Shown here piece after piece: positions 3,659 to 27,150 of a stretch of 27,150 bases of DNA (within the stretch, counting starts at the first letter, position 1; every line of letters starts with the position of its first letter). The stretch covers positions 1 through 27,150 of the IMG/VR virus record IMGVR_UViG_3300043410_000752; one strand, given 5' to 3'. A model generated the notes under the pieces. The model was not told where the DNA came from and made no database searches. It saw only the letters and a list, made by a program, of their open reading frames with translations. This DNA comes from a virus. A program made the translations under genes and the position numbers.

Positions 3659-4296
3659 AAGGAAACCCCTTTTTTCTTCGCAAAATACTTTTGACTAGCA
3701 ATTTTGTTGCATTGACGACAAAATCTTTTTCCATTTCCTAGCCAGCCTGTATTTGATTCATCAAATGGATGACCAGATTTGCACTCGGTTTTCTTCATGT
3801 TTTTTGCGCCAACGCCTTCTCCACGAAGATTGTTTTCTTTTACCGTTACTGGCTCAAGGTGCATTGGGTTGACGCATGAACGGTTCCTGCATAGGTGATC
3901 AATCACCATACCTTCAGGAATAGGGCCGTTCAATGCTTCCCAAACAACTCTATGCGCTCTTAAATTGCCACCACCATTGTTTTTGTTTGCAGATAACTCT
4001 CCATATCCTTGTGGCGTTATCCGACCTTTCCAATCATGGCATGGTGTTGATTTCCAATCCAATGCAGCTCTTAGGGATGTGATGGCTGTTCGTGCATGAC
4101 ATGGGTTGTATTCAGCATTGCATCTATCCCCACACGCTTCTTCCAACGCCTTCAGCCACTGTTTCATTGCTTCAATGCTCATGTGTTCATTTCCTTGTGG
4201 TTTTGCGACACATTCCTGCTTTGTGTCGTGCTCCCCATACTTTGGAGACATACAGACGTAGCATTCCTTAGTTGTCAGACCATGTTCGCAGCTCAT
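3655..4296 (-). CDS. HNH endonuclease fused to the front half of a phage accessory protein
   Basis: A 213-residue protein. Residues 1-79 are non-nuclease: a cysteine-bearing start (MSCEHGLTTKECYVC), then a segment from MSIEAMKQWLKALEEACG to AITSLRAAL like a common small phage protein. From about residue 82 it is an HNH_3-type homing endonuclease: AHRVVWEALNG near 114-124, IDHLCRNRSCVNPMHLE near 132-148 with the key H134, N143 and H146. A C-terminal zinc knuckle follows (C172, H176, C193, C196). The start at 4296 has GAGAGG six bases upstream and overlaps the previous stop. An internal in-frame ATG (residue 39) also has a good AAGGAA. The nuclease would nick or cut DNA for its own spread. Confidence 0.88.
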   Translation of the reverse strand: MSCEHGLTTKECYVCMSPKYGEHDTKQECVAKPQGNEHMSIEAMKQWLKALEEACGDRCNAEYNPCHARTAITSLRAALDWKSTPCHDWKGRITPQGYGELSANKNNGGGNLRAHRVVWEALNGPIPEGMVIDHLCRNRSCVNPMHLEPVTVKENNLRGEGVGAKNMKKTECKSGHPFDESNTGWLGNGKRFCRQCNKIASQKYFAKKKGVSL

Positions 4297-4445
4297 TTCG
4301 TACCTCTCAATTCCCATCCCAGAAGAAAGTATTTCCATCTTGTTTGCAGACTTGGGACTGCATACTTGCCTGTATGTGTCTTAGTAAAGTTGATATGTCC
4401 TGCGGCCCTCATCACTGCTTCAAACTCTCTTTGTGCTTGTGTCAT
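4293..4445 (-). CDS. 50-residue phage microprotein
   Basis: A short gene reading MTQAQREFEAVMRAAGHIN and ending with a tryptophan-rich tail (RWKYFLLGWELRGTK). The ATG at 4445 overlaps the stop of the upstream gene (ATGA). AAGGGG in that gene's last codons is the ribosome binding site. Its own stop overlaps the ATG of the HNH fusion at 4296. The tight double overlap and balanced composition support it as real. Function unknown; paired tryptophans near the end are a recurring feature of very small phage proteins. Confidence 0.7.
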   Translation of the reverse strand: MTQAQREFEAVMRAAGHINFTKTHTGKYAVPSLQTRWKYFLLGWELRGTK

Positions 4446-11797: not shown

Positions 11798-12083
11798 AAA
11801 CAAGAAGATCTTGGAGGTTGCGCGCGAACTGCCCTGCCAACACTGTGGAATACAGGACGGCACGGTGGTCGCTGCTCACTCCAACCAGCTGCGCGACGGC
11901 AAAGGTCGAAGCATCAAGGCCCACGACTATCGAATTGCATCTCTCTGCTATCGATGCCACAGCGAGCTGGACCAAGGCTCACGCATGAGCAAGGAAGAGC
12001 GCGTGCAAATGTGGGAAGACGCTCACCGGGGGACTATTGGTGAGCTCTTCTCTCGCGGCCTTATTGACGTTGTGAAGCCTTAA
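11787..12083 (+). CDS. YbcO/DUF1364-like HNH-type zinc protein
   Basis: A 98-residue protein with CQHC (C17, C20), AHSNQLRDGKG (H31) and LCYRCHSELDQG (C54, C57, H58), followed by a C-terminal helix. This is the DUF1364/YbcO pattern, a small phage nuclease-like fold with structural zinc and an HNH-like active-site histidine, usually found among phage recombination genes. Catalysis is inferred from the family. The start at 11787 overlaps the previous gene by 11 nt. The stop end runs 23 bp into the convergent giant gene, with no terminator seen between them. Confidence 0.8.
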   Translation: MIYRNKKILEVARELPCQHCGIQDGTVVAAHSNQLRDGKGRSIKAHDYRIASLCYRCHSELDQGSRMSKEERVQMWEDAHRGTIGELFSRGLIDVVKP

Positions 12084-15000
12084 CTCGTTCGTTGAAGTTA
12101 TTCATCATCCGAGTCTTCTGCTCTTTGAAGCGTTCAATCTGGGCCTTGGTTTGCTCGGTCTCAGGACGCTTTTGAATTTCCTTGATCGTCTTGTTGATCC
12201 GGGAGATCTGATTCTCAAGGTTGTTTGCGTTCTGGATGAACTTGTACTCAGGGTTGTCTTTCATGAACTCTGTGAGACTTTCACGCTTCTCACGCATGCG
12301 CTTCATCTCACCTTCAAGCTCGGCCAGCATCGTTACGTTCTTGTAGAACTTATCCGATACGGCTGACGGTGTTTGCGTCTCGCCGTAGGCCTTGCCCAGG
12401 ATTGGCACCTTGTAAGGCGGCGTCTCTTCACCCTCAGCCTTGGCTTTAACGAAGCCAACCGCCTTGGAAGCTTCACGACCCAGGCCACCCACGTACTGGG
12501 AGAACACATAGTCGATGTCATCAGCGGTCGGGCTGTAAGCTCCGATGCCGTACTTACCACCGCCCGTCAGGTAGTTGATACCATAAGCCAGACCTTTGCT
12601 GATGGCTGATGCGTTGTCACGGCTGCGCTCATACCCAGGCGTGGGATTCGTGGCTCGATTCTCTTTCGAGATCGGACGACCAAAGGCATCCTTGTTCTCA
12701 GCGATCGCAACGAATGGATCTACCAACGTGGGGGACAGGGTCTGGATCAAGCCACTGGAGCCCAGGGGGTTGAAGGCATCGAGCACAGCAGAGCCAATGC
12801 TCAGGATGGTCTTGGGAAGATCCCGCTTGCCCGTCATCGCGCCAGCCTGGGTGAGGGCATACTCCGTCACGATACGTGCAGTGTTGGGGAACACGTTCAA
12901 GCCCAGCGGCATCGGCACGATCAGATAGTTACCACTACCCGTTGGGATGATCAAGTTCTTGTTCTTCAAGAACTCTGGCGGCTCATCAGCATCAAAGCCA
13001 AAGATGGCCAGCAATGCAGCTTGCATCGCACCGATCATCATGCCGCCGGCAATGATTGACTTGCCCCCGGTTGTGAGGCTCACCTTGCCATTGTCATCGC
13101 GCTTAAAGATCAGCTGAGCCATACGGGCAGAGCCCTGCACAGAAGCGTTCAGGAAGGCGTAGAAGGCGTTTGCGTTCGTTGTCCAGGATCCTTTGCGGTT
13201 GAAGTTAACCGTGAGGTTCTTAGCCAGCTCAGCAGCGCGGTCCTCAGACAAGCCATTCTCAAGGGCTGCTTTGAATGCTGACAGACGCACGGCGTTTTCC
13301 ATCGCGTCGTTGTAGTCAGACAACCAGTCAGCCACAGCGTTGGCAACCTTACGCACGTTAGAGCGATCCAGGCGGGCCATCTCACGCTTGACCAGGGTCG
13401 CCTTGTCCTTGGCGCGGGTGAACTGCTCGCGGTAACCCGTCTGGCCACCGGCGTTGGCAAAGCGCTCGTACAGGTCGATCCACTCTTTTGCCTTGGCATT
13501 CGTTGGTGTCTTGCCACGCAGGTCGCGGTAGATTGCCTTGAGCGCGGGGATAGCATCAGCCACAACTTGCATGCGCTTGTCTGCGATGGAAGTGCCGGTC
13601 AGGTTGACGGCTGCAGACTCAACGTCACGCACAAAGTTCCAGGCACCGAACACCGGGTTGAACTGCGTGTTCATCGCGGCCATCAGGCGCGTCAGCTCAG
13701 CAATCGTATCCAGGCCGTTCTCAAGCTGGTGGGCGTCCATGTTCTTCAGAGCTTCGACCATTCGCTTGGCACGGGGGTCAGCCGGGTTGAAGATGATGAA
13801 GCGGTCCTTGCCGTTGATACGCACAGGGAACACGTTGGGCATGTTACGCATGGCCGGATTGACAGAGTACTCGACCATGCCGGTCTTCTTGTCAATGCGC
13901 GGCGTGCGGGGTTCTTGCAGGATGTTCTCTGCCGTATCAGCATCCAAGCCCATAGACTGGAGCTCAGCGATCAGCTTCTTCTTGTTCTTGATGGCATCAG
14001 GGTTGATGGGCATCCAGAACTCAGGGTTGGGTGCTTGCAAGGCCATCCCGTACAGGGCCCGACCAACACGCGCCTTCTCAGAGCGCACGATGGCCATCTC
14101 ACGCTGCAGCGCGATATTGTTCAGGATGTCCACCACCGTCTTCAGCGAGCCAGTAGCCGTGCGGGAGAAGTCACCCTTGATGGCAAAGCCCTTACCCATG
14201 CCAAAGCTTGGGTTCACAAAGTCTAGCTCGTTGGGATCACGCTTGAGCGGAACGTAGTGCTTGAACATGTCACGCCAGGAATCAATGCGCTCCTGGGTTT
14301 CAAGCCCATTTTCCACCAGCATGTCCTGGGTTTCAGCCACAAACTTATCGACATCCTTGGCCAGCTCTTCATACTTCTTCTTGTCCTCTGCGCTGAGGTT
14401 GTTGAAGTACTCAACGGCTTCATCGGTTTCAATGCCGGAACCCTTGTCGGCCATGCCAGCGTTACGCGAAGCAATCAGCTCGTTGTATTCAACGGCATGA
14501 CGGTTGTGCAGGTAGAACTCAAACTCGTCAACCTTCACGCCCATCTTTGCCATCTTCTCGATGAACGGACGGAAGTCACGCTTGAGGAAGTCCATGGTCT
14601 GCTTTGCAACACGACCGTGGTACAGCGTCTCTTTCAGGTAAGCATCAAAGCGGTCAGCAATATCGCCAATCCCCTTTGTGACGGCCTGCACAACTCGCTT
14701 GGTATCGATGTGCTTGTCCTGCCAACGATATGCCCAGTTGTCCAACTTGAGCATTTCAGGAGAATCCCAAGTGGACAAAGGAGCAGGCTTGCCCTTGTAG
14801 TTGCGGCGGGTGTTCTCATCCAGGTTGAGCATGCCCATCACGCTGGCTTCAACGTAGTCATTCAAGGCTGCTTTTGTGAAGCGCTCGCCCTTAGAAGACA
14901 TGATGTCGTTGAAGGTGCGCTGCACGATGTACTGGTTGTCAAACCCGAACATGTACTTCAGGCCTTCAAACAGTCGCTTAGCTGCCAGGACAAATCTATC

Positions 15001-18000
15001 CCAGCCAGTACCCAGCTTGCGTGCCATCAGCTTCTCAGCGTTGACTGCCCAGTATTCAGACGGGTTGATGTACTGGTAATAGTCGTAGCTTGGCATCAGG
15101 GCTACTGCGGCCTTGTATGCATCGATAGACGGGTTCTCAAAGAACTCCAGCACAGCTCGGAAGTATGGGCGTGCTTCAGGCACATCCTTCTTGATGGCTT
15201 TTCCAAGCTTGTCAGACCAATCCATGATCAGGTCTGCCACAGCATCAGCAGACATCATCTGCTCAAGGCCGTGGGTGATTTCATGGCGGATGGTTGATGG
15301 ATCTTGGACGCCGTTGGTGCCTTTGTACAGGCGAACCAGGCGCGCCAGAGAGAAGAACTGACCGGCAGCGTTACTGTCTTCCGGCTGCTTCTTCACCGAC
15401 AGGTTCAGCCCTTCCAGGACCATGGGGTACTTCTCGTACATGGTCTTGATGGCAGCGTAAACGTCATCACTGATGTTGCCGTCGTTCCACTCTCGGGTGG
15501 CGCGGGCAAAGAAGTTCTTGGCGTCTGTGCGCTTGACCTTGCTGGAAGCAATATCGTCTTTGATCTGGCTAGCAATCTCATCGATCGTGTTGATTGCTTC
15601 TTGCTCATCCAATCCGGTTTCACCCTTCTTGAACTTACGCATGATCGCGCCACGCTTTTGACGCAGGCTTTGGTACTTGCGGATCAATGTCTCGCGGTCA
15701 GCAACAAAGTTGGCCGTTGCACTCAGACTCTCACGCTCAAAATCAGGCTGGACATTAGCCAAAGGAACCTTAGGAGCAAACATCTCCCGAGCTTTATCCT
15801 TGTTGTTGTAAGCAATCAGAGTCTCGCCCCGGTCCGACAACAGATACTGGATAGCTTCGTTGGCTTTGTCCTGGCTATAAACCATTGCACGCATGATCTG
15901 GCCAGACTTGTAGAAGTCGCCAGTAATATCGGTCAGGCTTTTGTCAAGATAGAAAGTGCCGCCCTCACGCTTGGAGCTGGGGGTAACAAAGCGGTACTCA
16001 GAATTACCCATGTAGGCAATCTTGAGGTTCCATTCCGGCGTGCTGACCTCAGCGTTACGACCAAACGTGTTAAAGAAATCCATCACCGCAGCGAGGTTCT
16101 TCAAGCGAACGTCGGCGTTCTTCTGGGCTTTCTCAAAGTCAAACGTGCGGGGCATCAAGATGCCCTGAGCCGTGGTGCCATCATCCTTCGTGTAGGTGAT
16201 GATCTGGCCCATGTTATTCACAGCAGCGAAGCCAGCCAGGATGTTACCGGTCACCATCCAACGCTTCTCACGTCGCACGGTTGCACCCTTGTCGAACAGA
16301 TCCAACATCGGGATGTATTCGAACTTGTCGGTTGTAGGATTAAACCAGGCCGTCTCTGATTCTTTCTTCAGCTGGTAGGTGCTACCAATCTGAGAGAACG
16401 TCATCGTGATGGACTTGGCATCCCCATCAGCCAGGGCAATCGTCATCTTCCAATCAGAACCAGCAGCCGGGTTCTTGGTCTTCATCTTGTTCTGGACGTC
16501 TGTCACAACGCCCTTCACAAGCATGCCCTTGGAATGCTTCACCACCACCGGAGAACCGATCGGGAACTCGGTCAGAATGGTCTTGGCGTGGGTGTATTGC
16601 GCGTTGAGCTGGCTCTTGGTGTTCTCGATCTTGATCCGATCTGGCTCGGCTTCTTCTTCCATCTTTTGAATGATGGGTCGGCCATATTCCTTCACGCGAT
16701 CACTGAGCTCATGCCACATCTTGGCGGCTTTTTCGCCAGCCTTTTCGCCGTCCAGGCTTTCCTCAACCTGCTTCTTAACCTCATCCTTGGAGTAAGGCTT
16801 GACCGTGCGCTTGACGTCCACCTTCTCCATGATGGCGGGCTTGGCAAACACAGACGGGTCACCCTTGTCTTCGGTGATGGCAGCAGACGCAATCGTCTTG
16901 GCGTCAAGGTCAACAGCCTTGGCTTCCAACTTGTTGGTGCCCATGCTGTCTTCGCGCTCGATCAAATCGTTGTAGCGCTCGACCAGATCCTTGTAGACCT
17001 CTTCCTGCTGTTTGATGGGCAGGATGGGGATATACCCCGTCAGGCGGCGGATGTCGTCTTCGTTTGCCTCTGACGGATCTTCCATGATCTCAAGGATCTT
17101 CTTGCCACCCAGTGCTTCATAAACTTCAGGGTTGTCACGCAAGTATTCCTGGGCAACCTGACCGCCGTATTCATTCATGAAGTCAACAGCGCCTTCAGCA
17201 GACACGGCAGACTTACGCGAAGCTGTTGTGTTGGCGTTCAAGCTGGCCATCTTCTTGAGCAGGATGGCAGCAGGGCGCATCTCAGCAGGGATGTCAGCCA
17301 TCATCTGCGAGTAAGCAGGCGGGATCACCTGGCCAGTACGGTGAACACGGCCCAGCATCTGCATGTGGGTGTCGATGTTCTTCTCAGCCTGAACAATGAT
17401 CATGTGCCGCTTGCGCGTGTCTATGAACTTGTTTGAGGCATGTAGAGACAGACCAGTAGAACCAGCTTGGTTCAGAATGATGACGTCAGCTGCACCACTG
17501 TTAAAAGCCTTGACGGCATTCACACGTTGCTTGATGTTGGCGGTGCGGCTGGTCAGGATGGGACGTCCACCTTCGTAGTTCAGGGTCATGGTACGACCCG
17601 TGATCTCTTCGGTTTTTACATTACGCTCGACACCGTTTAAATCTTTAACCTTGGCCTTACGCAGCTCAGCGTGCATGTAGTCGATTGGAGAGATGGGGGC
17701 AGAGCCAAACCCAGCGTTCTCGATGAAAGTCTTTATTTCCTCGTACTGCTGAACCAGGGCCGGACCAAGATCGTTGTCAGTCAAACGATACTCTTCAACT
17801 CTTCCACCAGGATGCTTGATCGAAAGGATTCGTTGTTTCTCAAGGTAGCGGATGTACAGATCCTTGAACGACAAAGTGACAGGATCACCAACATTCAGGT
17901 TCATGTCATCAGCATAGGTCTTCAAGAAAGAACCCATGGTGTTAGACACTGTCATTACAACCTTCTCGCCTGCCTTCAAACGCTCAATCGCATGACGCAC

Positions 18001-21000
18001 AGACTCCTGTGCCTTCAAAGACAGCAGCATCTGGTCGATCAAGTTGTGCATGATCGAGCCAAAGTTGGCGCTCTGCACCTTGGTCTTTTCGCCTTCCATG
18101 CCAATCTTGGCACCCTGACGATCCATTTGCTTTTGGATGTCTTTGACTGCCAGCTCTTTTGCGCGCGAGAAAGCCAAGATGTCGCGCATCGACGTTGCCA
18201 TGTTCTCGGCAGTCTCTTTGTCAACCTTGGTCTCTTGAGTGTCATAAGACACACCAGCAAACGTGCGCTCGCGGCGGATGTACTGGCCAACCTGGGTCAG
18301 CATTTGAGCCACGGTCTGCTGCATCGGAATGCCGCCACCTTTGATAGCTTCTGCTAGCTCTGAAATCTTATCCACAGCCAGGCTCATGTCCGTGCTGGAG
18401 TACAGGTCCATCACGTCAGGGCGCTTGGCATACGTGGCCGATGAGAAGAACGTGCCGTAAGCTTTACTTACCAAGTTACGCACGAATGATGCGCGCCCGG
18501 TAGCCAGGCTTTCACCAGCTTTAGCCTTCTCTCTTTGTTCTTTAGTCCGGGCCTGGGTCTCACCAGCGCCGCCAGCGTTGTGGCTCTCGTCAAAGATCAT
18601 GTAGTTGCCAGCGGCAAACTGATTGATAAACTTTTGACGCTCGGTCTCTTTGCCCTTGACGGTCTGCAGCTGGCTGTACGTGGTGAAGATCACCTTGTAG
18701 TCACCCAAGCTATCCTTTTCCATCATGGACTTCATCATCCCGTCCAAAGCAGCCCCAGACTTGGGAGCTTTGAGGATCAGGTTGTTTTCAGTAATCTCGT
18801 CACCCTTCTTGCGCAGGAGGGTGTATGGAATAGATTCGCTGCCGTTGGTGATAAATATCTTGGGCTTGGCGGTATCAAGCGCCAGCTCTTTCGTCATCCC
18901 AATATCATCCAAGTCCCGGATCATGTCCGAGTACAGGTTGGGCTTCTCTGTCACAAAGATCGGCGTCTTATCGTTGACCAGGGCATAACGCATCATGGCG
19001 GCAACAACACGGCCTTTACCAACGCCGGTCTGATCCCCGATGATGAAGCCTTTGCCAGCCTCTGCGTTATTGATCGCAAGTGCCAGCGCATCTACCTGCT
19101 CAGCAGAGAACAACTCACGCACGGTCTCAGGATCCATTTCCAAAGACTCAGCAACGTAGTTGTCCAGGTCTCCGACCGAGCTCTCAATCTTGGCAAGAGA
19201 GTTCTCAATTGAGTCAGCCATGGCCTTGGGAACCAGGGTTCCAACAGAGTTGGCTTGCGAATGGGGATAGTAAGCGACCTGGTTTTCTGTTTCGGTCTCC
19301 AGGCCACGGCGTTCTGCTAAGCCAGATCCGACACGTTCACCTGAGACAACGCTAACTCCACCCAGCTTTCCAGGTCCACGTCCTTCAGCGCCTGCTTCGC
19401 CAGCTCGTTTGGCCCGCTCACCTGCGCCGGCCACTGGTTCTCCCTTTGCTCCACGCTCAGATACGTCAGCAGGTTCAGGTTGTACTTCACCAGCGCCTCG
19501 CCCACCTGGTTCGCGCTCTCCACGCTCGGTAGGTCTAGCCTCCGACACGCCTCGTTCGCCGCCTCCAGCGGGTTTTCTTCCTTCAGCGCCAGGTCCGCCA
19601 CTCGGTCGCTCAGCGCCTCGATCCACTCCTTCTCGCTCAGCTTCCCCTTCGGCACTGACACCGCTGTCAGCTCTGCCGGTGCCACGATCTTCTCCGGATA
19701 CCATGGGTTCATTTAGCTTCTCCTTTAATTGTTCGTATGTCGTGATGAGCTGGGGCAGCTCTGCTGCAGGCAGATCCCGCGATGACTTGCCAACACCGTC
19801 AATCACGATCACATCAACGGGATAGGTGGTGCCCTGCTTGGCGTACAAGTTGCCGCCTGCTGTGAAATGATCCACAACGTTATAGAGGTTGTACAGCTCG
19901 TAATAGAACTCACGCTTGGCGCGGTTCCTGTAGCCCTCGCGGCGTCCCTCTTCGGTCGTGGCCTGCACACCACCCACAATCAAGACAGCGCGGCCATCTT
20001 CCTTCAGCCCAACCAGGGACTTCAGGACAATGTCGTGGTCGATGTTGCTGATCTCACCAGCCTTGCCAAACGGCGGGTTGGCGATGACAACGTCAAAGGA
20101 GTTGTTCTCAATCTCCATCTCCAGAGCATTCTCTTGAGAGATGTCAGCACCAAACATGATGGTTTCCAACATGCGCGCCCGATCAGGATCAAGCTCGTTT
20201 GCTCGCACTTTGTCCGGGTTGGCCGCGATCAACAGCATGCCGTTGCCTGCAGTTGGCTCAAGCACGGTTGTTTTGTTGGTAATCCCAGCCAGCTCAGAGG
20301 CAACATAAGCCAGAGGGGCGGGCGTGGAATAAGCTTGGTTGGCTACGCTAGTTGAACTGCGAACAGAGAGGTTAGGCTGACGGTTGTACAAACCGACCAG
20401 CTCGTCATAGATTTCTTGGGTAGATCGCTTATTAAACCTACCCTCTTCGATAATATTGCGAGCGGCAATGATGACGCCTGCTTCAATCGCTTCGTCAGCA
20501 TCCTTTGCGGCTTTGGTACCGGGCTCAATCTTTTCGCCAGTAATTTTGCTGATCTGATCTCTGGCCTCAACAATGGTCTTAAAGCTGGCTCCATCGGAAA
20601 GTTTGTCTCCAATCTCTTGCGCCATTTTTTCTTTGCGAGAAAATTGAACAGCACTCTCTATGCCGCTAGGAGCTTCGCGCTCTTCAATCTCATCCATCGA
20701 CTCAACTTCGATGACTTCCTTCTTCGAGCTAGCGCCCTGATCCTGATACTTACCGGCCATGCCGATGTACGAACCTTGCAGGTGATCCAGCGTGATCTGG
20801 TCTGCAACTTCGTCCCCCAGCTTGGAGCGGATCGTGTCCATCACAAAGCGAGAAGCTTCCTTGAACTTGATCTTTCCTAGACGGAAGGCAGCATCCATGA
20901 TCCGGGTCAGGATCGGCAGAAGCTTTTGCTCATCTTCAGGAACAATGTTCATGCGCCCAGGCTTGGACAACAGCATGGACAGATCGCCCAGCGCATCTTC

Positions 21001-23658
21001 CAGGTCTTGCTGAGCTTTAGCTTTTTCCTCAGCTTCCTTAGTTGCTTCGGTTTCTTTTGCTTCTTTCTCGGCAACAGCCTTGGTCCGCTCTTTTTCGGTT
21101 TTAGCACGAGCCTTGTCGAGCGCCTCTCGAATTAAGCGCTCATCTTCTGATCGAGATACTTTCTGATCTTCTGTCAGAGTTGCCTGGGCATCCTTCAATG
21201 CCTTGGCAAAGCGCTCACCCATGGGAGTGAACTGAGGCTTTTTGCCCGGCTCTTGATAGGTAATGCCCTGGCCCTTCATCCAACCCGAGGTAGGCACATC
21301 AACAACTCGGCCAGCTTTCATTTTGTCAACGGCATCGATTGCTTTATCGATCGTTGGCAAAGGAGAATACTTGCCAGTCTGAGTTTTCTTTTCAATCTCA
21401 TCAATTTGCTTGAGCAAATCGCTGGAAGTAGTTTTGGGTGCTTCGACAGCAGGTGCCGCAGGCTTCGCTAAAGCAGGCTGCAACACGTTTTCACGAATCA
21501 TTGCCTCGGCTTCTTCGCTGGACGGCTGTCTTGCACTAAGCCCAGCCGGCTTGATTTTGCCTAGCAAGTCACGGCCTTTTGGCGTCAAGATGCCTTTGCC
21601 GTTAATCATGTCGCTCGCTAACAGCGCATCCTTAACAGGGCCGTCTTTCAACGACTCGGTTGAAGCATCTTCCAAACCCATGAAAACTTGGATTGGTGTC
21701 GGGGTTACTGCTGAGGGTGCGGCAGGAGCTGGCGCAGCAGGTGGGGTAGGAGCCGGTGCAGGCGTAACCTCTGTGGCAGGAGCTGCATATTTGTCTTCAA
21801 ATAATTTAGACAAACGTTCCATTACCGGGCTGTAATCAGTACCCAGAACAGATGTTGCAAAGGCTTGCTGGGTTTCTTGAGGAGCAGAAGATAAAAATTT
21901 ATCAACCGCAGCATCACCCACAACACGTCTAAACAACTTCTCTTTATCTCGTTCGCTACGAGACATTCTGGCAAAACCACCAGCATCACTATCCAACTCG
22001 AGGTAATCTTTATCGACTTTTAGTCTTACCCCTTTTGACTTTTCTGTTTCACCAAAAAACGTTGTTCTGTCTGGGCTTACGCTGACAGAGTTAACAGTGA
22101 GTCCGCCCGCAACTTGAGGCTGTTTAAGATCAATCCTTGATCCTGTGCCAGTTTTAGACGCTGTGTAAAGATTGTTATCAACAACAACCTCCGGCATGTA
22201 CAGAGTGTCTTTATCTTTTGGAGGCTCTTGATAACGAATTGTTTCTTTGCCAATGGCAGGAGCTTCCACCACGGGAGCTGCAGGCGGCGCTGGCGGGGGT
22301 GTAACTTGTTTCACTTCTGTCCCAAAAGTACTCACTTCTGGGGGTGTAACAGGCTCTGGTGTTACCTTTGGTTCTGCTGGTTTACCCGTAGCAACAGGTG
22401 GCTTTTCTTCGGTCTGCGCAAGGATCTCACGCAACATTGCTGCCGTGTCTTGGGCTTCTTCTGCGCTGGGTGCGGCAGGTGCAGCCGGGGGCGCAGCGGC
22501 TGGAGGAGCAGCCGGAGGAGGGGGCGTTGTAGCTACAGGGGCCGCAGGAGGTGCAGGCGGGGTAATTGCGCTAGGCAAGCCTGGTGTACGCAAAGAACGT
22601 GCGGCCAACGGCACTTCGACTGCTGATCCACCCAGCTCACCCAAAATTTCAAGCGCAACATCTTCCAGGTCAACCTTGCCGTAAGCAGCAAGCTGACCGC
22701 CAGCTTCAGAGATACCACCGCCAGCAACGTCAAGACCAACACCAGCAGCACCGCGACCCACCTTCTGGCCGATGGTTCTGCTAGCCATAATTTCGTTGGC
22801 TCGATCTGCAATCTTTGCAACGTCTGCAGTAGCCCCTAATTCGGTCCTGGCGGCTTTAATTGCGGCGCTCTTGGCACCACCAGCCACCTTGCCTCCCAAA
22901 GCCGTTGTAGCAGCATCTATGGCCGCTGTCGTCGTACCTTTTGTGCGGGCTTCTGAGATAGCCTTTTGCAAGAACTCTTTGTCTTGCATCAGTGCCTGGA
23001 CGTTTGCTTCTGTAGGAGCAAGCCCACGATTGTTTAGCTCTTTACCGATCAACCCAATAAACTCTGATCCGATCTCGACAGGGGCTTGGCCTGCAAATGC
23101 ACCGCCGATAGCACCAACACCAGCACCGATGGCAGTACCAACGCCAGGAGCAATGGCCGTTCCTGCAAGAGCACCACCCTTACCGCCAGCGATCATGCCG
23201 GCGATGGAGGGAGCCATGTTTGCCGCCTGCTCAGCGGTCATGTACATCAGACCCTTGGGGTTGGTGATGGCTTGACGGCCAACCTCATAGAGCATCTCAC
23301 CAATCGCCTTGGATCCTTGCATGAATCCTTGGGCTTCTTCCCAGGCTTTACCTTCTTCTTTGAAAGCGCCTTTGATGTCTTTGAGCTCTTTGGGTTCAGG
23401 GACGGTTGTGCCCAGCTGCTCAGCGATTAGCTTTGATTTAGCGGCAACATCCCCACCGGCAATGACAGAGGGAGCAACTTCAGCGGCACCAAGCGTTTGC
23501 TTGCCACCTTTGACTAGAAGTTGTCCAATGTTGGAAAAGAACCCTGGCTCTGGAGGAGCATTCTTGTCGGTGTAATTAGCCCATTGCCAAGCAGTATTCG
23601 GATCGGGGGCATCAACTTCATACGTTTTACCCCCGACATCAACTTCATAAATAGGCAT
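12061..23658 (-). CDS. 3865-residue polyvalent protein: DarB-like methyltransferase-helicase, zincin motif, LPD38-like end
   Basis: Start supported by GAGGT five bases upstream. Regions by residue: about 1-30, IYEVDVGGKTYEVDAPDP, an entry motif of large phage virion proteins; about 150-196, a glycine/alanine-rich, possibly membrane-inserting stretch; Pro/Ala linkers near 363-406, 450-466 and 623-656; a charged helical region near 840-900. An N6-adenine methyltransferase follows (VLEPTAGNGMLL near 1130, NPPFG 1194-1198). About 1316-1447 is a Gly/Glu/Arg-rich linker hosting a nested gene. A Strawberry-notch SF2 helicase comes next (GDQTGVGKG 1541-1549, DESH 1690-1693, LGRVHRTGQ near 2100). HEITH at 2792-2796 is a metalloprotease motif. 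The last part (about 3480-3640) resembles LPD38 with a hydrophobic GGMMIGAMQAALLAIFG, then a basic coiled coil. Methyltransferase plus helicase matches phage P1 DarB, an ejected anti-restriction protein. I infer packaging in the virion. Confidence 0.93.
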   Translation of the reverse strand: MPIYEVDVGGKTYEVDAPDPNTAWQWANYTDKNAPPEPGFFSNIGQLLVKGGKQTLGAAEVAPSVIAGGDVAAKSKLIAEQLGTTVPEPKELKDIKGAFKEEGKAWEEAQGFMQGSKAIGEMLYEVGRQAITNPKGLMYMTAEQAANMAPSIAGMIAGGKGGALAGTAIAPGVGTAIGAGVGAIGGAFAGQAPVEIGSEFIGLIGKELNNRGLAPTEANVQALMQDKEFLQKAISEARTKGTTTAAIDAATTALGGKVAGGAKSAAIKAARTELGATADVAKIADRANEIMASRTIGQKVGRGAAGVGLDVAGGGISEAGGQLAAYGKVDLEDVALEILGELGGSAVEVPLAARSLRTPGLPSAITPPAPPAAPVATTPPPPAAPPAAAPPAAPAAPSAEEAQDTAAMLREILAQTEEKPPVATGKPAEPKVTPEPVTPPEVSTFGTEVKQVTPPPAPPAAPVVEAPAIGKETIRYQEPPKDKDTLYMPEVVVDNNLYTASKTGTGSRIDLKQPQVAGGLTVNSVSVSPDRTTFFGETEKSKGVRLKVDKDYLELDSDAGGFARMSRSERDKEKLFRRVVGDAAVDKFLSSAPQETQQAFATSVLGTDYSPVMERLSKLFEDKYAAPATEVTPAPAPTPPAAPAPAAPSAVTPTPIQVFMGLEDASTESLKDGPVKDALLASDMINGKGILTPKGRDLLGKIKPAGLSARQPSSEEAEAMIRENVLQPALAKPAAPAVEAPKTTSSDLLKQIDEIEKKTQTGKYSPLPTIDKAIDAVDKMKAGRVVDVPTSGWMKGQGITYQEPGKKPQFTPMGERFAKALKDAQATLTEDQKVSRSEDERLIREALDKARAKTEKERTKAVAEKEAKETEATKEAEEKAKAQQDLEDALGDLSMLLSKPGRMNIVPEDEQKLLPILTRIMDAAFRLGKIKFKEASRFVMDTIRSKLGDEVADQITLDHLQGSYIGMAGKYQDQGASSKKEVIEVESMDEIEEREAPSGIESAVQFSRKEKMAQEIGDKLSDGASFKTIVEARDQISKITGEKIEPGTKAAKDADEAIEAGVIIAARNIIEEGRFNKRSTQEIYDELVGLYNRQPNLSVRSSTSVANQAYSTPAPLAYVASELAGITNKTTVLEPTAGNGMLLIAANPDKVRANELDPDRARMLETIMFGADISQENALEMEIENNSFDVVIANPPFGKAGEISNIDHDIVLKSLVGLKEDGRAVLIVGGVQATTEEGRREGYRNRAKREFYYELYNLYNVVDHFTAGGNLYAKQGTTYPVDVIVIDGVGKSSRDLPAAELPQLITTYEQLKEKLNEPMVSGEDRGTGRADSGVSAEGEAEREGVDRGAERPSGGPGAEGRKPAGGGERGVSEARPTERGEREPGGRGAGEVQPEPADVSERGAKGEPVAGAGERAKRAGEAGAEGRGPGKLGGVSVVSGERVGSGLAERRGLETETENQVAYYPHSQANSVGTLVPKAMADSIENSLAKIESSVGDLDNYVAESLEMDPETVRELFSAEQVDALALAINNAEAGKGFIIGDQTGVGKGRVVAAMMRYALVNDKTPIFVTEKPNLYSDMIRDLDDIGMTKELALDTAKPKIFITNGSESIPYTLLRKKGDEITENNLILKAPKSGAALDGMMKSMMEKDSLGDYKVIFTTYSQLQTVKGKETERQKFINQFAAGNYMIFDESHNAGGAGETQARTKEQREKAKAGESLATGRASFVRNLVSKAYGTFFSSATYAKRPDVMDLYSSTDMSLAVDKISELAEAIKGGGIPMQQTVAQMLTQVGQYIRRERTFAGVSYDTQETKVDKETAENMATSMRDILAFSRAKELAVKDIQKQMDRQGAKIGMEGEKTKVQSANFGSIMHNLIDQMLLSLKAQESVRHAIERLKAGEKVVMTVSNTMGSFLKTYADDMNLNVGDPVTLSFKDLYIRYLEKQRILSIKHPGGRVEEYRLTDNDLGPALVQQYEEIKTFIENAGFGSAPISPIDYMHAELRKAKVKDLNGVERNVKTEEITGRTMTLNYEGGRPILTSRTANIKQRVNAVKAFNSGAADVIILNQAGSTGLSLHASNKFIDTRKRHMIIVQAEKNIDTHMQMLGRVHRTGQVIPPAYSQMMADIPAEMRPAAILLKKMASLNANTTASRKSAVSAEGAVDFMNEYGGQVAQEYLRDNPEVYEALGGKKILEIMEDPSEANEDDIRRLTGYIPILPIKQQEEVYKDLVERYNDLIEREDSMGTNKLEAKAVDLDAKTIASAAITEDKGDPSVFAKPAIMEKVDVKRTVKPYSKDEVKKQVEESLDGEKAGEKAAKMWHELSDRVKEYGRPIIQKMEEEAEPDRIKIENTKSQLNAQYTHAKTILTEFPIGSPVVVKHSKGMLVKGVVTDVQNKMKTKNPAAGSDWKMTIALADGDAKSITMTFSQIGSTYQLKKESETAWFNPTTDKFEYIPMLDLFDKGATVRREKRWMVTGNILAGFAAVNNMGQIITYTKDDGTTAQGILMPRTFDFEKAQKNADVRLKNLAAVMDFFNTFGRNAEVSTPEWNLKIAYMGNSEYRFVTPSSKREGGTFYLDKSLTDITGDFYKSGQIMRAMVYSQDKANEAIQYLLSDRGETLIAYNNKDKAREMFAPKVPLANVQPDFERESLSATANFVADRETLIRKYQSLRQKRGAIMRKFKKGETGLDEQEAINTIDEIASQIKDDIASSKVKRTDAKNFFARATREWNDGNISDDVYAAIKTMYEKYPMVLEGLNLSVKKQPEDSNAAGQFFSLARLVRLYKGTNGVQDPSTIRHEITHGLEQMMSADAVADLIMDWSDKLGKAIKKDVPEARPYFRAVLEFFENPSIDAYKAAVALMPSYDYYQYINPSEYWAVNAEKLMARKLGTGWDRFVLAAKRLFEGLKYMFGFDNQYIVQRTFNDIMSSKGERFTKAALNDYVEASVMGMLNLDENTRRNYKGKPAPLSTWDSPEMLKLDNWAYRWQDKHIDTKRVVQAVTKGIGDIADRFDAYLKETLYHGRVAKQTMDFLKRDFRPFIEKMAKMGVKVDEFEFYLHNRHAVEYNELIASRNAGMADKGSGIETDEAVEYFNNLSAEDKKKYEELAKDVDKFVAETQDMLVENGLETQERIDSWRDMFKHYVPLKRDPNELDFVNPSFGMGKGFAIKGDFSRTATGSLKTVVDILNNIALQREMAIVRSEKARVGRALYGMALQAPNPEFWMPINPDAIKNKKKLIAELQSMGLDADTAENILQEPRTPRIDKKTGMVEYSVNPAMRNMPNVFPVRINGKDRFIIFNPADPRAKRMVEALKNMDAHQLENGLDTIAELTRLMAAMNTQFNPVFGAWNFVRDVESAAVNLTGTSIADKRMQVVADAIPALKAIYRDLRGKTPTNAKAKEWIDLYERFANAGGQTGYREQFTRAKDKATLVKREMARLDRSNVRKVANAVADWLSDYNDAMENAVRLSAFKAALENGLSEDRAAELAKNLTVNFNRKGSWTTNANAFYAFLNASVQGSARMAQLIFKRDDNGKVSLTTGGKSIIAGGMMIGAMQAALLAIFGFDADEPPEFLKNKNLIIPTGSGNYLIVPMPLGLNVFPNTARIVTEYALTQAGAMTGKRDLPKTILSIGSAVLDAFNPLGSSGLIQTLSPTLVDPFVAIAENKDAFGRPISKENRATNPTPGYERSRDNASAISKGLAYGINYLTGGGKYGIGAYSPTADDIDYVFSQYVGGLGREASKAVGFVKAKAEGEETPPYKVPILGKAYGETQTPSAVSDKFYKNVTMLAELEGEMKRMREKRESLTEFMKDNPEYKFIQNANNLENQISRINKTIKEIQKRPETEQTKAQIERFKEQKTRMMNNFNERVKASQRQ
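19317..19712 (-). CDS. 131-residue gene nested in another frame of the giant gene
   Basis: The ATG at 19712 has AAAGGAG seven bases upstream and a stop at 19317-19319. The frame is shifted by one base from the giant gene. The product is balanced and helical: MNPWYPEKIVAPAELTAVSV, KGKLSEKEWIEALSDRVADL, then ENPLEAANEACRRLDLPSVE, NLNLLTYLSVEQRENQWPAQ and a LESWVELAL end. By hand count about 111 of 131 codons end in G or C, mostly CTG, GCG, GAG, GTG and AAG. The giant frame over the same bases gives low-complexity Gly/Glu/Ala/Arg, as expected if the nested frame is the one under selection. Function unknown; no signal peptide or membrane segment. It may be an insertion of a foreign gene into a tolerant linker. 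Confidence 0.75.
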   Translation of the reverse strand: MNPWYPEKIVAPAELTAVSVPKGKLSEKEWIEALSDRVADLALKEENPLEAANEACRRLDLPSVESANQVGEALVKYNLNLLTYLSVEQRENQWPAQVSGPNELAKQALKDVDLESWVELALSQVNVSDLA

Positions 23659-23665
23659 AGTTACC

Positions 23666-25621
23666 TCATTGTTTAGGCTTCAGCCGCACTGCTCCAGGAG
23701 GAGGTGCGCTTCCCAGATCAACTTTGGCCATTTCAGCTATTTTCGCAGTAACTATAGCCAATTGTCGAGCAGCTTCTTTCTGTGAATCAGGGTCCGGGTT
23801 TTTCATCGGATCTGCCATGATTCTCAAATTTTCTGCCAATGTTTTAAGTTCAGCAAGAGTCTGCTTGTTAGGTGCAAGATAAGAGGCCGGCTTTGTAACA
23901 GCTTCGTAAGCCTCAGCGTAAGACATCTCCGTATTGTTTTTCATCAAATCCGCAATAGCTTTATCAATACGCGCTCCTGCAGCCAGCTGGGGACCAGCAG
24001 AGATGCGAGCGGTAGCAAGTGCATTTGCCATCTTCTCACGATCAAGCACAGCATCTTGTGCCAGCTTCTTGGCGGCGTCATCGGTTCTGCCCATCTCTTT
24101 AGCGGCGTCATAAGCCTCTTTGTAGACGGTGTTGAACTCTTCACGTCCAATCGTGAACACGTCTTTCTTCCAGCCACGCTTAACATCAGAGATCTTGGCC
24201 TGTGTTTCAAACAAGCTTTTTGCCAATTCAAAGTCTTGAAGATCACGAGCGGCTTGTTGTTTGTCTGCATAGTCAGCACCGCGAGAACCAGAGAACATCC
24301 AACGCTCTCCCTTGGGTGCCAACGCAGTACCACGCAACAGGTCTTGAATAGGATCTGCACGCTCAGCTATCTTTTGACGACGAGCTGCAATTTCTTCCGC
24401 AAGCGATTGCAAACCAGTTGTATCAGGCGCGCCAACCTCTTTCTCGAAACGCTCACGCATCAACCGCTCACGCGCAGCAGGATCTAAGTCACGGCGCGCG
24501 CGAATGATGTCAAGGTTCTTTTTCTGCTCAGCTGCATCCATGATCCCTTGAGGAGCTGCAGCAGCAGGGGCAGCAGCTGGGACAGGAGGTTTAGCAGAGA
24601 CTACCGGAGCTGTTGGAGCAACAGGTGGAGCAGGCGGTTTTACAACTGCATCAGGATTGGCACCTTCAAAACGTTTTTTGATAACAGCATTGGCCTCTGC
24701 TTGTTCTTGCGGAGTGCGCTGGATGCCTGATTTTTCATCTTGCTTACGAGCTGCTTCAAATACCTCTTGTTGAGTCATGCCGGCAACACGCTTGGGCTGT
24801 TCATTGGTTTGACTCAAAGGCACCAAATCAGCATTTGGCTGGGTATCTCTCAAAGAACTTAAACCAGTGCCAGGGTAATTGAGCGCATGTTTAAGGGCGG
24901 TAAGACCAGCATTTCCAAGAAATTTAAACGCCTTGGTAATTCCTGATTCTTCCTCTTTGTTTTCTGTGCGCTCTTGTATACGACGAAAAATATCGTCTGC
25001 TGTTTCTTTATCAAGCTCAGGAACTGTGCTTCCTTGCTCACCCTTGCCGTTAAATCCCATGATGCCTTCATCAGCATGACCTGATTTTTTCATCTCATTA
25101 ACTCTTGCAAGAATGGCAGCTTTGATCTTGGCCCTAATTGCTTCAGTTTTAGGATCGTCAGCTTGTACATCACCGCCATCTTCAAAGGCAATAATGCCGC
25201 CACCAGCCAGGTTTTGACCGATGTTTGAAGTGAGCACATCCAAGCCTTGAGCATCAGGTTGACTGACGGGCTGGGGCACGCCTGCAGGAATCTGTCCTGA
25301 CTGGGCTTGTTGAGCCAACGCCTGCAACCCCTGCTGCTTTTGTTGCTCTTGCATCATTCGCGATTGCAAAGCTTGCTTGGCTTTCATCTCAACGTTTTCA
25401 GCAACCGTTGGCTGATTTGACACTTGTTGCAACTTTTGTAACGCTTGATTGCGTTTCATTGCATCATCCTCCGATGTGAGAATTTGCAGAGCTAAAAGCT
25501 TTTGCAAGTCAGGAGGAATGCCAGGTTTTGCTTGTTCTTCCTTTTGAATGCGCTGTTCAAGCGCGCCAGGATTTCCCTGATACAAGGAAGCAATGTCCTT
25601 AATGCTCGGTTGAGAAAACAT
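23666..25621 (-). CDS. probable internal or structural virion protein
   Basis: A 651-residue, glutamine/alanine-rich, mostly helical protein. It begins MFSQPSIKDIASLYQGNPGA with long predicted coiled coils (about 20-115), and has a glycine motif LAGGGIIAFEDGG near 138-150. A charged helical part and a Pro/Ala linker (about 324-359) follow, then more helices (AEEIAARRQKIAERAD and onward). Such proteins lie next to giant polyvalent proteins in phages and are usually virion or ejection proteins; that role is inferred. TAAGGA sits just before the ATG. The last codons and stop create the GAGGT site of the giant gene seven bases away. Confidence 0.75.
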   Translation of the reverse strand: MFSQPSIKDIASLYQGNPGALEQRIQKEEQAKPGIPPDLQKLLALQILTSEDDAMKRNQALQKLQQVSNQPTVAENVEMKAKQALQSRMMQEQQKQQGLQALAQQAQSGQIPAGVPQPVSQPDAQGLDVLTSNIGQNLAGGGIIAFEDGGDVQADDPKTEAIRAKIKAAILARVNEMKKSGHADEGIMGFNGKGEQGSTVPELDKETADDIFRRIQERTENKEEESGITKAFKFLGNAGLTALKHALNYPGTGLSSLRDTQPNADLVPLSQTNEQPKRVAGMTQQEVFEAARKQDEKSGIQRTPQEQAEANAVIKKRFEGANPDAVVKPPAPPVAPTAPVVSAKPPVPAAAPAAAAPQGIMDAAEQKKNLDIIRARRDLDPAARERLMRERFEKEVGAPDTTGLQSLAEEIAARRQKIAERADPIQDLLRGTALAPKGERWMFSGSRGADYADKQQAARDLQDFELAKSLFETQAKISDVKRGWKKDVFTIGREEFNTVYKEAYDAAKEMGRTDDAAKKLAQDAVLDREKMANALATARISAGPQLAAGARIDKAIADLMKNNTEMSYAEAYEAVTKPASYLAPNKQTLAELKTLAENLRIMADPMKNPDPDSQKEAARQLAIVTAKIAEMAKVDLGSAPPPGAVRLKPKQ

Positions 25622-25630
25622 TTTTTTTCC

Positions 25631-27150
25631 TTAGGGCTTGATAACGCCAAGTTTTGTCAGGTAAGCAATCACCGTATCCGCAGCTGCAGCACTGGTTTGC
25701 AAAGTGTTGGGCGTTGCGGTGGACGTCCCTTGAGTTGCAAGCGGCAAACCACTAAACAAACTTTGCATGTACTTGACCATGTTTTTGTCATAGTCTCGTT
25801 GCTCTTCAAACTGAGCTTTGTCAGCAGCCACTCCTTCTGCATCAATAGCGCGCTGAGTTGCTCCCAGATCAGCTAGATCTTTCACAGACTTTATGCCAAA
25901 GTCAGCGCTGTATTGGCGAGAGGCTTCAGAAGCTTTATCTGCTTCCATGCGGCGTTGTTGGTCAGCGTTGAACTGCTGCATTGCCTTGTCATAGGCAGTC
26001 TGATAACCGGTGCCAATCGCTTGAGTCTGCTTATCAAGCAGGTTACGGCGACCTTCAGATTCCATAATTGCCTGGCGTCCACCACCGTAAGCACCAGCCT
26101 TTGTCAGGCGACTGGCATCAGCCAAACGAGCAATGTCAGATTGACGCTGCATCTCTTTCAGCTGAGGATCCAAGGCCGCTTGAATGTACGGATTCATGTA
26201 CTGGTTTGCTGCGTTAATGTCAAACAAACCGCCGGTGAAAGTGGTTGGCTTGTATCCGCTTTTGGCAATGTCACTTATCCCAGCAAATGCTTGTTGCTGC
26301 AAATCAGATGCGCCAGCAGTCAAAGGACCGGTGTAAGCTTGGTAAGGCGTTGTAGAAACAGCCTTGCCTCTTGCAAGCATGTCCGTTACTTCCGGGCCAG
26401 CCCAGTTGGACAGGTTGGATTCATAGGTTGGCTTAGTTGTGTCAACCGTACCACCATCCAAATATCCTTTAATGTTACCGCCAGAGGCATAACCCACTGC
26501 GCCGCCAGGCATGAACTTGTCAGGGTTGATTTGTTTGCCCTGTTTCTTCGTGCCGGTGCGGGCCATGCGGATCTTGTCCATCATCTGATACAGCTTGCGC
26601 GCGCCAGCATCACTGTTGCCGTTTCCAAGGTGGGAAACAACATCGGCCGGAACAACAAACTCACCATGGCTCAGTTTTGCAGGCTGGCGCCCATCAATGG
26701 AAGCGGGCAGTTTGTCAGCCATACCATCAGATGCGCCTTGCAAATAGCGACCTTTAGACAGCATGGCAATACCACCATGAGCCATTGCCGTAGTTGTAGA
26801 TTTGTTATCCACAGGCAGATATTTTTTTAACATATCATTAGGGTTAAGAATGGACGAAATGCCTGAAGCAGCAGACGTTGTATCGGCTTTTGTAGTGGAT
26901 GTATTGCTTTCCCAAGGCCGTTCCATCTTCCCAACATACGGGTTAGTCTGAGCGGTTGCCGGCGTATATTTGCTCAAAATATCAGCAGCCTGTTGTTGTG
27001 TAGCGGTTTTTGCCGCCTGAATTCCAGCTTTATCGTCTTTTGGTACAAACTGGGTGTCACTAAAATACGAACGACCAGTGCTACCAGGGCGACGATTTGG
27101 GTCGGTATAGTTAACAGCTTGGCGAACAGCTTCGTATTTTGGAATGGAGC
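25631..27150 (-). CDS. probable virion structural protein, 5' end beyond the window
   Basis: The frame is open from the stop at 25631 to the right edge, about 506 codons. A TTG at 26977 is only an internal leucine, since protein-like sequence continues upstream of it (IPKYEAVRQAVNYTDPNRRP and onward). Visible features: AHGGIAMLSKGRYLQG, the block LSHGEFVVPADVVSHLGNG near 26620-26680 with RKLYQMMDKIRMAR after it, and GGAVGYASGG and GYLDGG glycine motifs. A long helical glutamine-rich half follows. The GEFVVPADVVS block is typical of large virion proteins of aquatic podovirus-like phages; the exact role is unknown. It is cotranscribed with the next two genes (gaps of 9 and 7 nt). Confidence 0.8.
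   Translation of the reverse strand, partial: SIPKYEAVRQAVNYTDPNRRPGSTGRSYFSDTQFVPKDDKAGIQAAKTATQQQAADILSKYTPATAQTNPYVGKMERPWESNTSTTKADTTSAASGISSILNPNDMLKKYLPVDNKSTTTAMAHGGIAMLSKGRYLQGASDGMADKLPASIDGRQPAKLSHGEFVVPADVVSHLGNGNSDAGARKLYQMMDKIRMARTGTKKQGKQINPDKFMPGGAVGYASGGNIKGYLDGGTVDTTKPTYESNLSNWAGPEVTDMLARGKAVSTTPYQAYTGPLTAGASDLQQQAFAGISDIAKSGYKPTTFTGGLFDINAANQYMNPYIQAALDPQLKEMQRQSDIARLADASRLTKAGAYGGGRQAIMESEGRRNLLDKQTQAIGTGYQTAYDKAMQQFNADQQRRMEADKASEASRQYSADFGIKSVKDLADLGATQRAIDAEGVAADKAQFEEQRDYDKNMVKYMQSLFSGLPLATQGTSTATPNTLQTSAAAADTVIAYLTKLGVIKP

What the first reader, a model, noticed from the sequence alone, without database searches (positions are those of the whole stretch)
19317..19712. 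A complete, high-GC3 gene nested out of frame in the linker of the giant gene
The frame has a strong AAAGGAG site, an ATG, 131 codons and a stop. About 85 percent of codons end in G or C by hand count, and the product has natural composition with helices and aromatic residues. The giant frame over the same bases is a low-complexity Gly/Glu/Ala/Arg linker that lies exactly between the methyltransferase and helicase. The simplest reading is that a foreign gene was inserted without breaking the giant frame, and the linker is the by-product of reading it in a shifted phase. That is overprinting by insertion, and it places a free-standing small protein inside an ejected anti-restriction protein gene.
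Basis: partly seen in the sequence, partly recalled or inferred. Interest (0 to 1): 0.88.

Follow-up and report, generated by a model that had tools for sequence, protein, structure and literature searches.

The report
Hidden gene inside giant antirestriction gene
A small, never-annotated gene is written in a second reading frame inside the floppy linker of a giant phage and plasmid DNA-modifying protein, and it has been kept there across phages and plasmids of several bacterial phyla, so both messages have evolved together on the same DNA for a very long time.

Summary
It lies in the +1 frame of a 3,865-aa methyltransferase-helicase gene, with AAAGGAG 7 nt before its ATG. Every close relative (about 40 distinct viral loci) keeps the same start, stop and frame. 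Over exactly these bases substitutions move from giant codon position 3 to position 1, which is nested position 3. The nested protein is more conserved than the giant frame in 378 of 378 pairs. AlphaFold gives it a confident fold (pLDDT 91) without a database match; the giant frame over the same bases is disordered (pLDDT about 25). Iterative profile search recruited 122 ORFs, all at this site, from phages, plasmids and MAGs of several phyla; Bacteroidota loci have a nested ORF at the same place, but sequence homology is unproven there. On the giant's tree carriers form one clade with one loss; Proteobacterial plasmid giants lack the gene. No free-standing copy was found, so 'a recently inserted foreign gene' is not supported; the high GC3 is explained by the second frame. 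Translation is inferred, not observed. Most likely role: a dedicated partner or regulator of the methyltransferase-helicase.

The parts
19317..19712 (-). nested gene: 131-aa acidic protein (pI 4.4), family signature W-x-P ... FP ... L-x-x-W
   Evidence: AlphaFold pLDDT 91.4
19720..19726 (-). ribosome-binding site AAAGGAG of the nested gene, 7 nt before its ATG; in the giant frame it encodes the conserved K-E of LKEKLN
   Evidence: sequence; SD of 5+ nt in all 37 phage-clade loci; AAGGAG or AAAGGA in all 30 distinct close relatives
12061..23658 (-). host giant gene, 3,865 aa polyvalent protein: NPPF adenine methyltransferase, Strawberry-notch-type helicase, LPD38
19714..20640 (-). methyltransferase domain of the giant protein (NPPF motif), folded
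   Evidence: AlphaFold residues 38-346 of the segment, mostly above pLDDT 80; MTase matches
19372..19707 (-). giant-frame linker over the nested gene: disordered, Gly/Glu/Ala/Arg/Pro-rich
   Evidence: pLDDT about 25 over residues 349-460 of the segment
16936..19116 (-). helicase of the giant protein (AAA_34 and Helicase_C_4, Strawberry-notch type)
12397..12987 (-). LPD38, large polyvalent protein-associated domain

Best explanation
One mRNA carries two proteins. Ribosomes starting at the giant gene's own start read through MTase, linker and helicase. Other ribosomes bind AAAGGAG inside the coding sequence, start at the nested ATG in the +1 frame and make a 131-aa, acidic, folded protein. The linker is a tolerant disordered spacer, so the DNA is shaped mainly by the nested protein while the giant frame is kept free of stops. 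The nested protein arose once, before the carrier clade diversified, and is most likely a dedicated partner of the methyltransferase-helicase: a subunit, assembly factor or activity brake made beside it, never needed without it. Shown: ORF, RBS, frame, conservation, selection in both frames, distribution, predicted fold. Inferred: translation (about 0.95), single origin (about 0.8), partner role (about 0.5). The stated confidence is for the whole chain including the role.
For: Giant positions 1/2/3 differ 0.25/0.18/0.57 upstream, 0.38/0.30/0.24 in the ORF and 0.21/0.14/0.54 downstream; a cyanobacterial clade shows the same independently, 0.07/0.05/0.34 against 0.19/0.07/0.06; in 19 of 20 further pairs from several clades nested position 3 varies as much as or more than the other positions. 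Nested identity exceeds giant-frame identity in 378/378 phage pairs and 66/66 cyanobacterial pairs. Giant frame is held open: 0/300 resamplings. Folded versus disordered. 122 of 122 profile-recruited ORFs lie at the same site out of 9,864 ORFs. Genome-wide matches in cyanobacteria lie beside the helicase of the giant, never alone. Tree: carriers one clade, 99% SH-aLRT, one loss. Nested and host-domain identities correlate, rho 0.50, 0 of 999 permutations.
Against: No ribosome profiling or peptide data. The nested protein has no recognisable domain or fold match, so the partner role rests on linkage alone. In L141 the giant frame has in-frame stops while the nested ORF is open, which could mean a role of its own or recent decay. 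Homology of the Bacteroidota and some short alphaproteobacterial nested ORFs to the rest is not significant by profile.
Confidence: 0.5

Rival explanations
1. The nested protein is an independent anti-defence protein (for example an acidic inhibitor of a host restriction enzyme) that shares the locus for compactness and co-delivery, not a partner of the giant enzyme.
For: Host gene is DarB-like antirestriction in architecture; nested family is acidic, median pI 4.4, median charge -10.
Against: An independent inhibitor should sometimes occur alone; none was found. Charge is modest and no fold match to known inhibitors was found.
Confidence: 0.25
2. A selfish or homing insertion carrying an out-of-frame gene, like the ShiLan element in phage methylases.
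For: Same geometry: an in-frame, stop-free insertion hides an out-of-frame gene in a methylase gene, and the host frame there is a loop (PMC11855218).
Against: No HNH motif, histidine 1.1% of residues and none conserved; not sporadic, one loss in a large clade; correlated with host domains; no copies elsewhere.
Confidence: 0.05
3. The nested ORF is not translated; it is an open frame left by a low-complexity linker rich in stop-poor codons.
For: In the window alone the frame stays open in 88 of 300 synonymous resamplings; an antisense frame is also often open.
Against: Codon-position switch, higher conservation of the nested frame, conserved RBS and start, confident fold, decay of control ORFs. 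A linker alone would vary at giant position 3.
Confidence: 0.03
4. Ancestral operon MTase - small gene - helicase became a fused giant by reading through the small gene in a shifted phase; the nested gene is older than the linker. This concerns origin only and is compatible with the partner role.
For: Nested protein is folded and dominates selection, linker is disordered; MTase and helicase occur as separate genes in Persicobacter.
Against: No free-standing small gene was found; Persicobacter's split genes have no small gene between them; giants without it are fused too.
Confidence: 0.3

Closest known systems
DarB-type methylase-helicase dyad / polyvalent proteins (Iyer et al. 2017, PMC5512222)
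   Same: The host gene: NPP(F/Y) adenine MTase fused to an SF2 helicase, with an LPD domain, on phages and plasmids.
   Different: That paper does not contain the word overlap; phage P1 darB has no nested relative. The nested protein is the new part.
ShiLan domain, hidden out-of-frame HNH endonuclease in phage methylases (PMC11855218)
   Same: A gene in another frame inside a methylase gene whose own frame stays open over it and is predicted to be a loop.
   Different: ShiLan is a sporadic homing element with an HNH fold and free relatives; this gene is fixed in a deep clade, has no HNH motif, an own Shine-Dalgarno site and no free relatives found.
Lambda Rz1 inside Rz, and phiX174 E inside D (established examples, from general knowledge)
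   Same: Phage gene wholly inside another in a shifted frame with its own ribosome site; Rz and Rz1 are partners.
   Different: Unrelated proteins; the host here is a giant DNA-modifying enzyme shared by plasmids and phages of several phyla.

Membership tests
Out-of-frame nested (overprinted) gene | complete ORF with start and ribosome site inside another gene's coding sequence | tested here: met
Out-of-frame nested (overprinted) gene | frame, start and stop conserved in relatives | tested here: met
Out-of-frame nested (overprinted) gene | purifying selection in the nested frame, seen as a switch of the variable codon position | tested here: met
Out-of-frame nested (overprinted) gene | both products translated | not testable with these tools
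   no expression data; 0 of 300 resamplings keep the giant frame open by chance, which supports its translation indirectly
ShiLan-type hidden homing endonuclease | HNH or other nuclease signature | tested here: not met
   no Pfam, PHROG or NCBIfam family; no conserved histidine
ShiLan-type hidden homing endonuclease | sporadic distribution across closely related hosts | tested here: not met
   present in nearly all of one clade, one loss
DarB-like methylase-helicase polyvalent protein (host gene) | NPP(F/Y) adenine MTase fused N-terminal to an SF2 helicase | tested here: met
DarB-like methylase-helicase polyvalent protein (host gene) | packaged in the virion and acting on injected DNA | not testable with these tools
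   no proteomic data; homologues on plasmids
Acidic DNA-mimic antirestriction proteins (Ocr, ArdA) | shared fold with known members | tested here: inconclusive
   no significant Foldseek match and no VIA-align Z of 2 or more; absence of a match is not proof
Acidic DNA-mimic antirestriction proteins (Ocr, ArdA) | strongly acidic | tested here: inconclusive
   median charge -10, pI 4.4; moderate

The most novel reading that the evidence does not exclude
A whole protein family exists only as an overprinted gene inside the interdomain linker of methyltransferase-Sbno helicase giants. It was born once, is kept across phages and plasmids of several bacterial phyla, works as an obligate partner of the enzyme that encodes it, and is unannotated or mis-resolved in public genomes.
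Probability: 0.45. Interest if true: 0.93.

Novelty: new variant of a known kind. Interest (0 to 1): 0.86.

Why it matters
Most overlapping genes known in bacteria and their phages are young, narrow or weakly supported (general knowledge). This one is 95-175 codons, folded in the form modelled, old and spread across mobile elements of several phyla, with an independent switch of selection in at least two clades. It gives a clean natural experiment on how a folded protein and a disordered linker share one DNA sequence, adds a hidden component to antirestriction methylase-helicases, and shows that annotation pipelines drop or mis-resolve such genes: in Gloeobacter the pipeline kept the nested ORF and truncated the giant. 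The model cyanobacterium PCC 7002 carries one on pAQ6, so it can be tested soon.

Tried and rejected
Foreign origin from GC3: rejected, explained by the second frame. Free-standing relatives: none by tblastn in phages, profile in viral contigs, genome contigs or whole genomes; the Bacteroidota search is uninformative because the profile misses that clade's own members. Family names: weak, scattered hits only. Fold search: nothing. Homology of the Bacteroidota nested family by profile-profile comparison: not significant. P1 DarB: no nested relative. Internal promoter before the nested gene: none found. Programmed frameshift into the nested frame: a TAA lies directly before the ATG in that frame in the window and most close relatives, so internal initiation is simpler.

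Full report
What was checked. The ORF at 19317-19712 on the minus strand is present as described: ATG, 131 codons, TAG, with AAAGGAG 7 nt before the start. It lies in the +1 phase inside a 3,865-aa ORF (12061-23658, minus) that carries an NPPF methyltransferase, a Strawberry-notch-type helicase (PF13872, PF13871) and LPD38. The window is an IMG/VR virus record of 27,150 bases. By itself the ORF proves little: with the giant protein held fixed and codons redrawn from the gene's own usage, the nested frame stays open in 88 of 300 trials.

Conservation in close relatives. The nested protein and the surrounding giant segment recover viral relatives with 61-93% identity in the giant. All keep a 129-134-codon ORF in the same phase with the same start context (AAGGAG, 7 nt, ATG; one has AAAGGA) and the same stop region. 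A profile search finds 48 viral loci, the most distant at 39% identity; all are nested in the same phase. Two other same-phase ORFs of over 100 codons in the same giant gene serve as controls: both are broken by stops in relatives, while the nested frame has none in 15 genomes.

Selection. Giant codon position 1 is nested position 3. Mean pairwise differences at giant positions 1/2/3 are 0.254/0.175/0.569 upstream, 0.375/0.296/0.235 inside and 0.209/0.139/0.539 downstream. An independent cyanobacterial clade gives 0.071/0.052/0.337 outside and 0.187/0.073/0.062 inside. In 20 further pairs from several clades, aligned on the nested protein, differences at nested positions 1/2/3 average 0.308/0.272/0.431. 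Nested amino-acid identity exceeds that of the giant frame over the same bases in 378 of 378 phage pairs and 66 of 66 cyanobacterial pairs. The giant frame is also under selection: redrawing nested codons synonymously would put about 10 stops into it in the window, and 0 of 300 trials leave it open. The high GC3 (0.85 against 0.61) is therefore expected: nested third positions are giant first positions, where G is favoured and T avoided.

Two products, two structures. AlphaFold with 26 relatives gives the nested protein mean pLDDT 91.4 and pTM 0.86, mostly helical. The giant segment folds as MTase and helicase, with residues 349-460 at pLDDT about 25, which matches the nested gene (residues 347-478 of the segment) closely. 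No significant fold match was found in PDB or viral models and no known family in Pfam, PHROGs or NCBIfam.

Breadth. A giant-domain alignment brought 159 further loci from genomes and viral contigs, and plasmids were searched too. Nearly all fused giants outside one Proteobacterial group have a +1 ORF of about 95-170 codons starting 120-140 codons after NPPF; the +2 frame only occasionally has a long one. An iterative profile search seeded with the phage family, run on 9,864 six-frame ORFs from all loci, recruited 122, all at the nested site; one (L157) runs on in frame into the helicase. Carriers include Cyanobacteriota, Pseudomonadota and Thermodesulfobacteriota by significant profile match. 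For Bacteroidota, a Candidatus Moraniibacteriota MAG and some short alphaproteobacterial forms only place, phase and size agree; profile comparison is not significant. Bacteroidota pairs do show the nested position-3 excess. The near-invariant signature of the recruited family is W-x-P, with FP and L-x-x-W further on.

Origin. On a tree of the MTase and helicase columns, without the linker, 11 of 12 sampled giants lacking the gene form one clade (99% SH-aLRT) and all carriers the other, with one loss; the root is not known. Whole-genome searches of 386 cyanobacterial and 398 Pseudomonadota genomes found the family only inside a giant, beside its helicase. So there is no sign of a recent foreign insertion. 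Whether the gene was born in the linker or an old operon gene was overrun by fusion is open.

Function. The constant factor is the methyltransferase-helicase, not the virion: the gene is on plasmids and in phages alike and was never found alone. I therefore favour a dedicated partner or regulator of that enzyme, made from the same mRNA by internal initiation. This is inference. An independent acidic anti-defence protein is the main rival.

Prior work. The paper that defined these dyads contains no mention of overlap. [quoted passage not shown] it differs in motif, distribution and start signal. Searches of the held paper library found no report of this gene; most subscription papers are not covered. 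P1 DarB has no nested relative.

Limits. No expression data exist here. Start codons outside the phage clade were chosen partly for their Shine-Dalgarno site, so the 96% with such a site is biased; the phage clade, where the start is unambiguous, is not affected. Pairwise counts are not independent events. The profile could not reach Bacteroidota genomes, so says nothing about them. A test bed is at hand: Picosynechococcus sp. PCC 7002 pAQ6 carries the nested gene (profile E 3e-24).

Noticed in passing
L098:2501-2950 (Gloeobacter morelensis pGMOR1): The public annotation keeps the nested ORF (WP_230844304.1, hypothetical protein) and starts the giant only at 2947, although the giant frame is open from 1486; the pipeline resolved the overlap by truncating the giant.
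   Followed up: partly
L141:2737-7257 (Oscillatoria sp. CS-180): The giant frame has in-frame stops, but the nested ORF (3752-4348) is intact.
   Followed up: no
L157:3851-8512 (Leptolyngbya MAG): The nested frame runs on in frame into the helicase; a frameshift, assembly error or true fusion of nested protein and helicase.
   Followed up: no
L173 (Bacteroidetes bacterium SZAS-40): The only giant inside the carrier clade without a nested ORF; apparent loss.
   Followed up: partly
13149-13565 and 20343-20654, minus strand: Two more same-phase ORFs of 138 and 103 codons inside the giant gene; not conserved in relatives, so chance.
   Followed up: yes
23666-25621 and 25631-27148, minus strand: Two large upstream genes (651 aa and at least 505 aa) without a significant PHROG or Pfam match; the first also has none by tblastn in phages.
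   Followed up: partly
L015, L018, L024 around the nested gene: Upstream, nested and downstream segments show different degrees of divergence in the same pairs, which suggests recombination between these phages at or near the nested gene.
   Followed up: no
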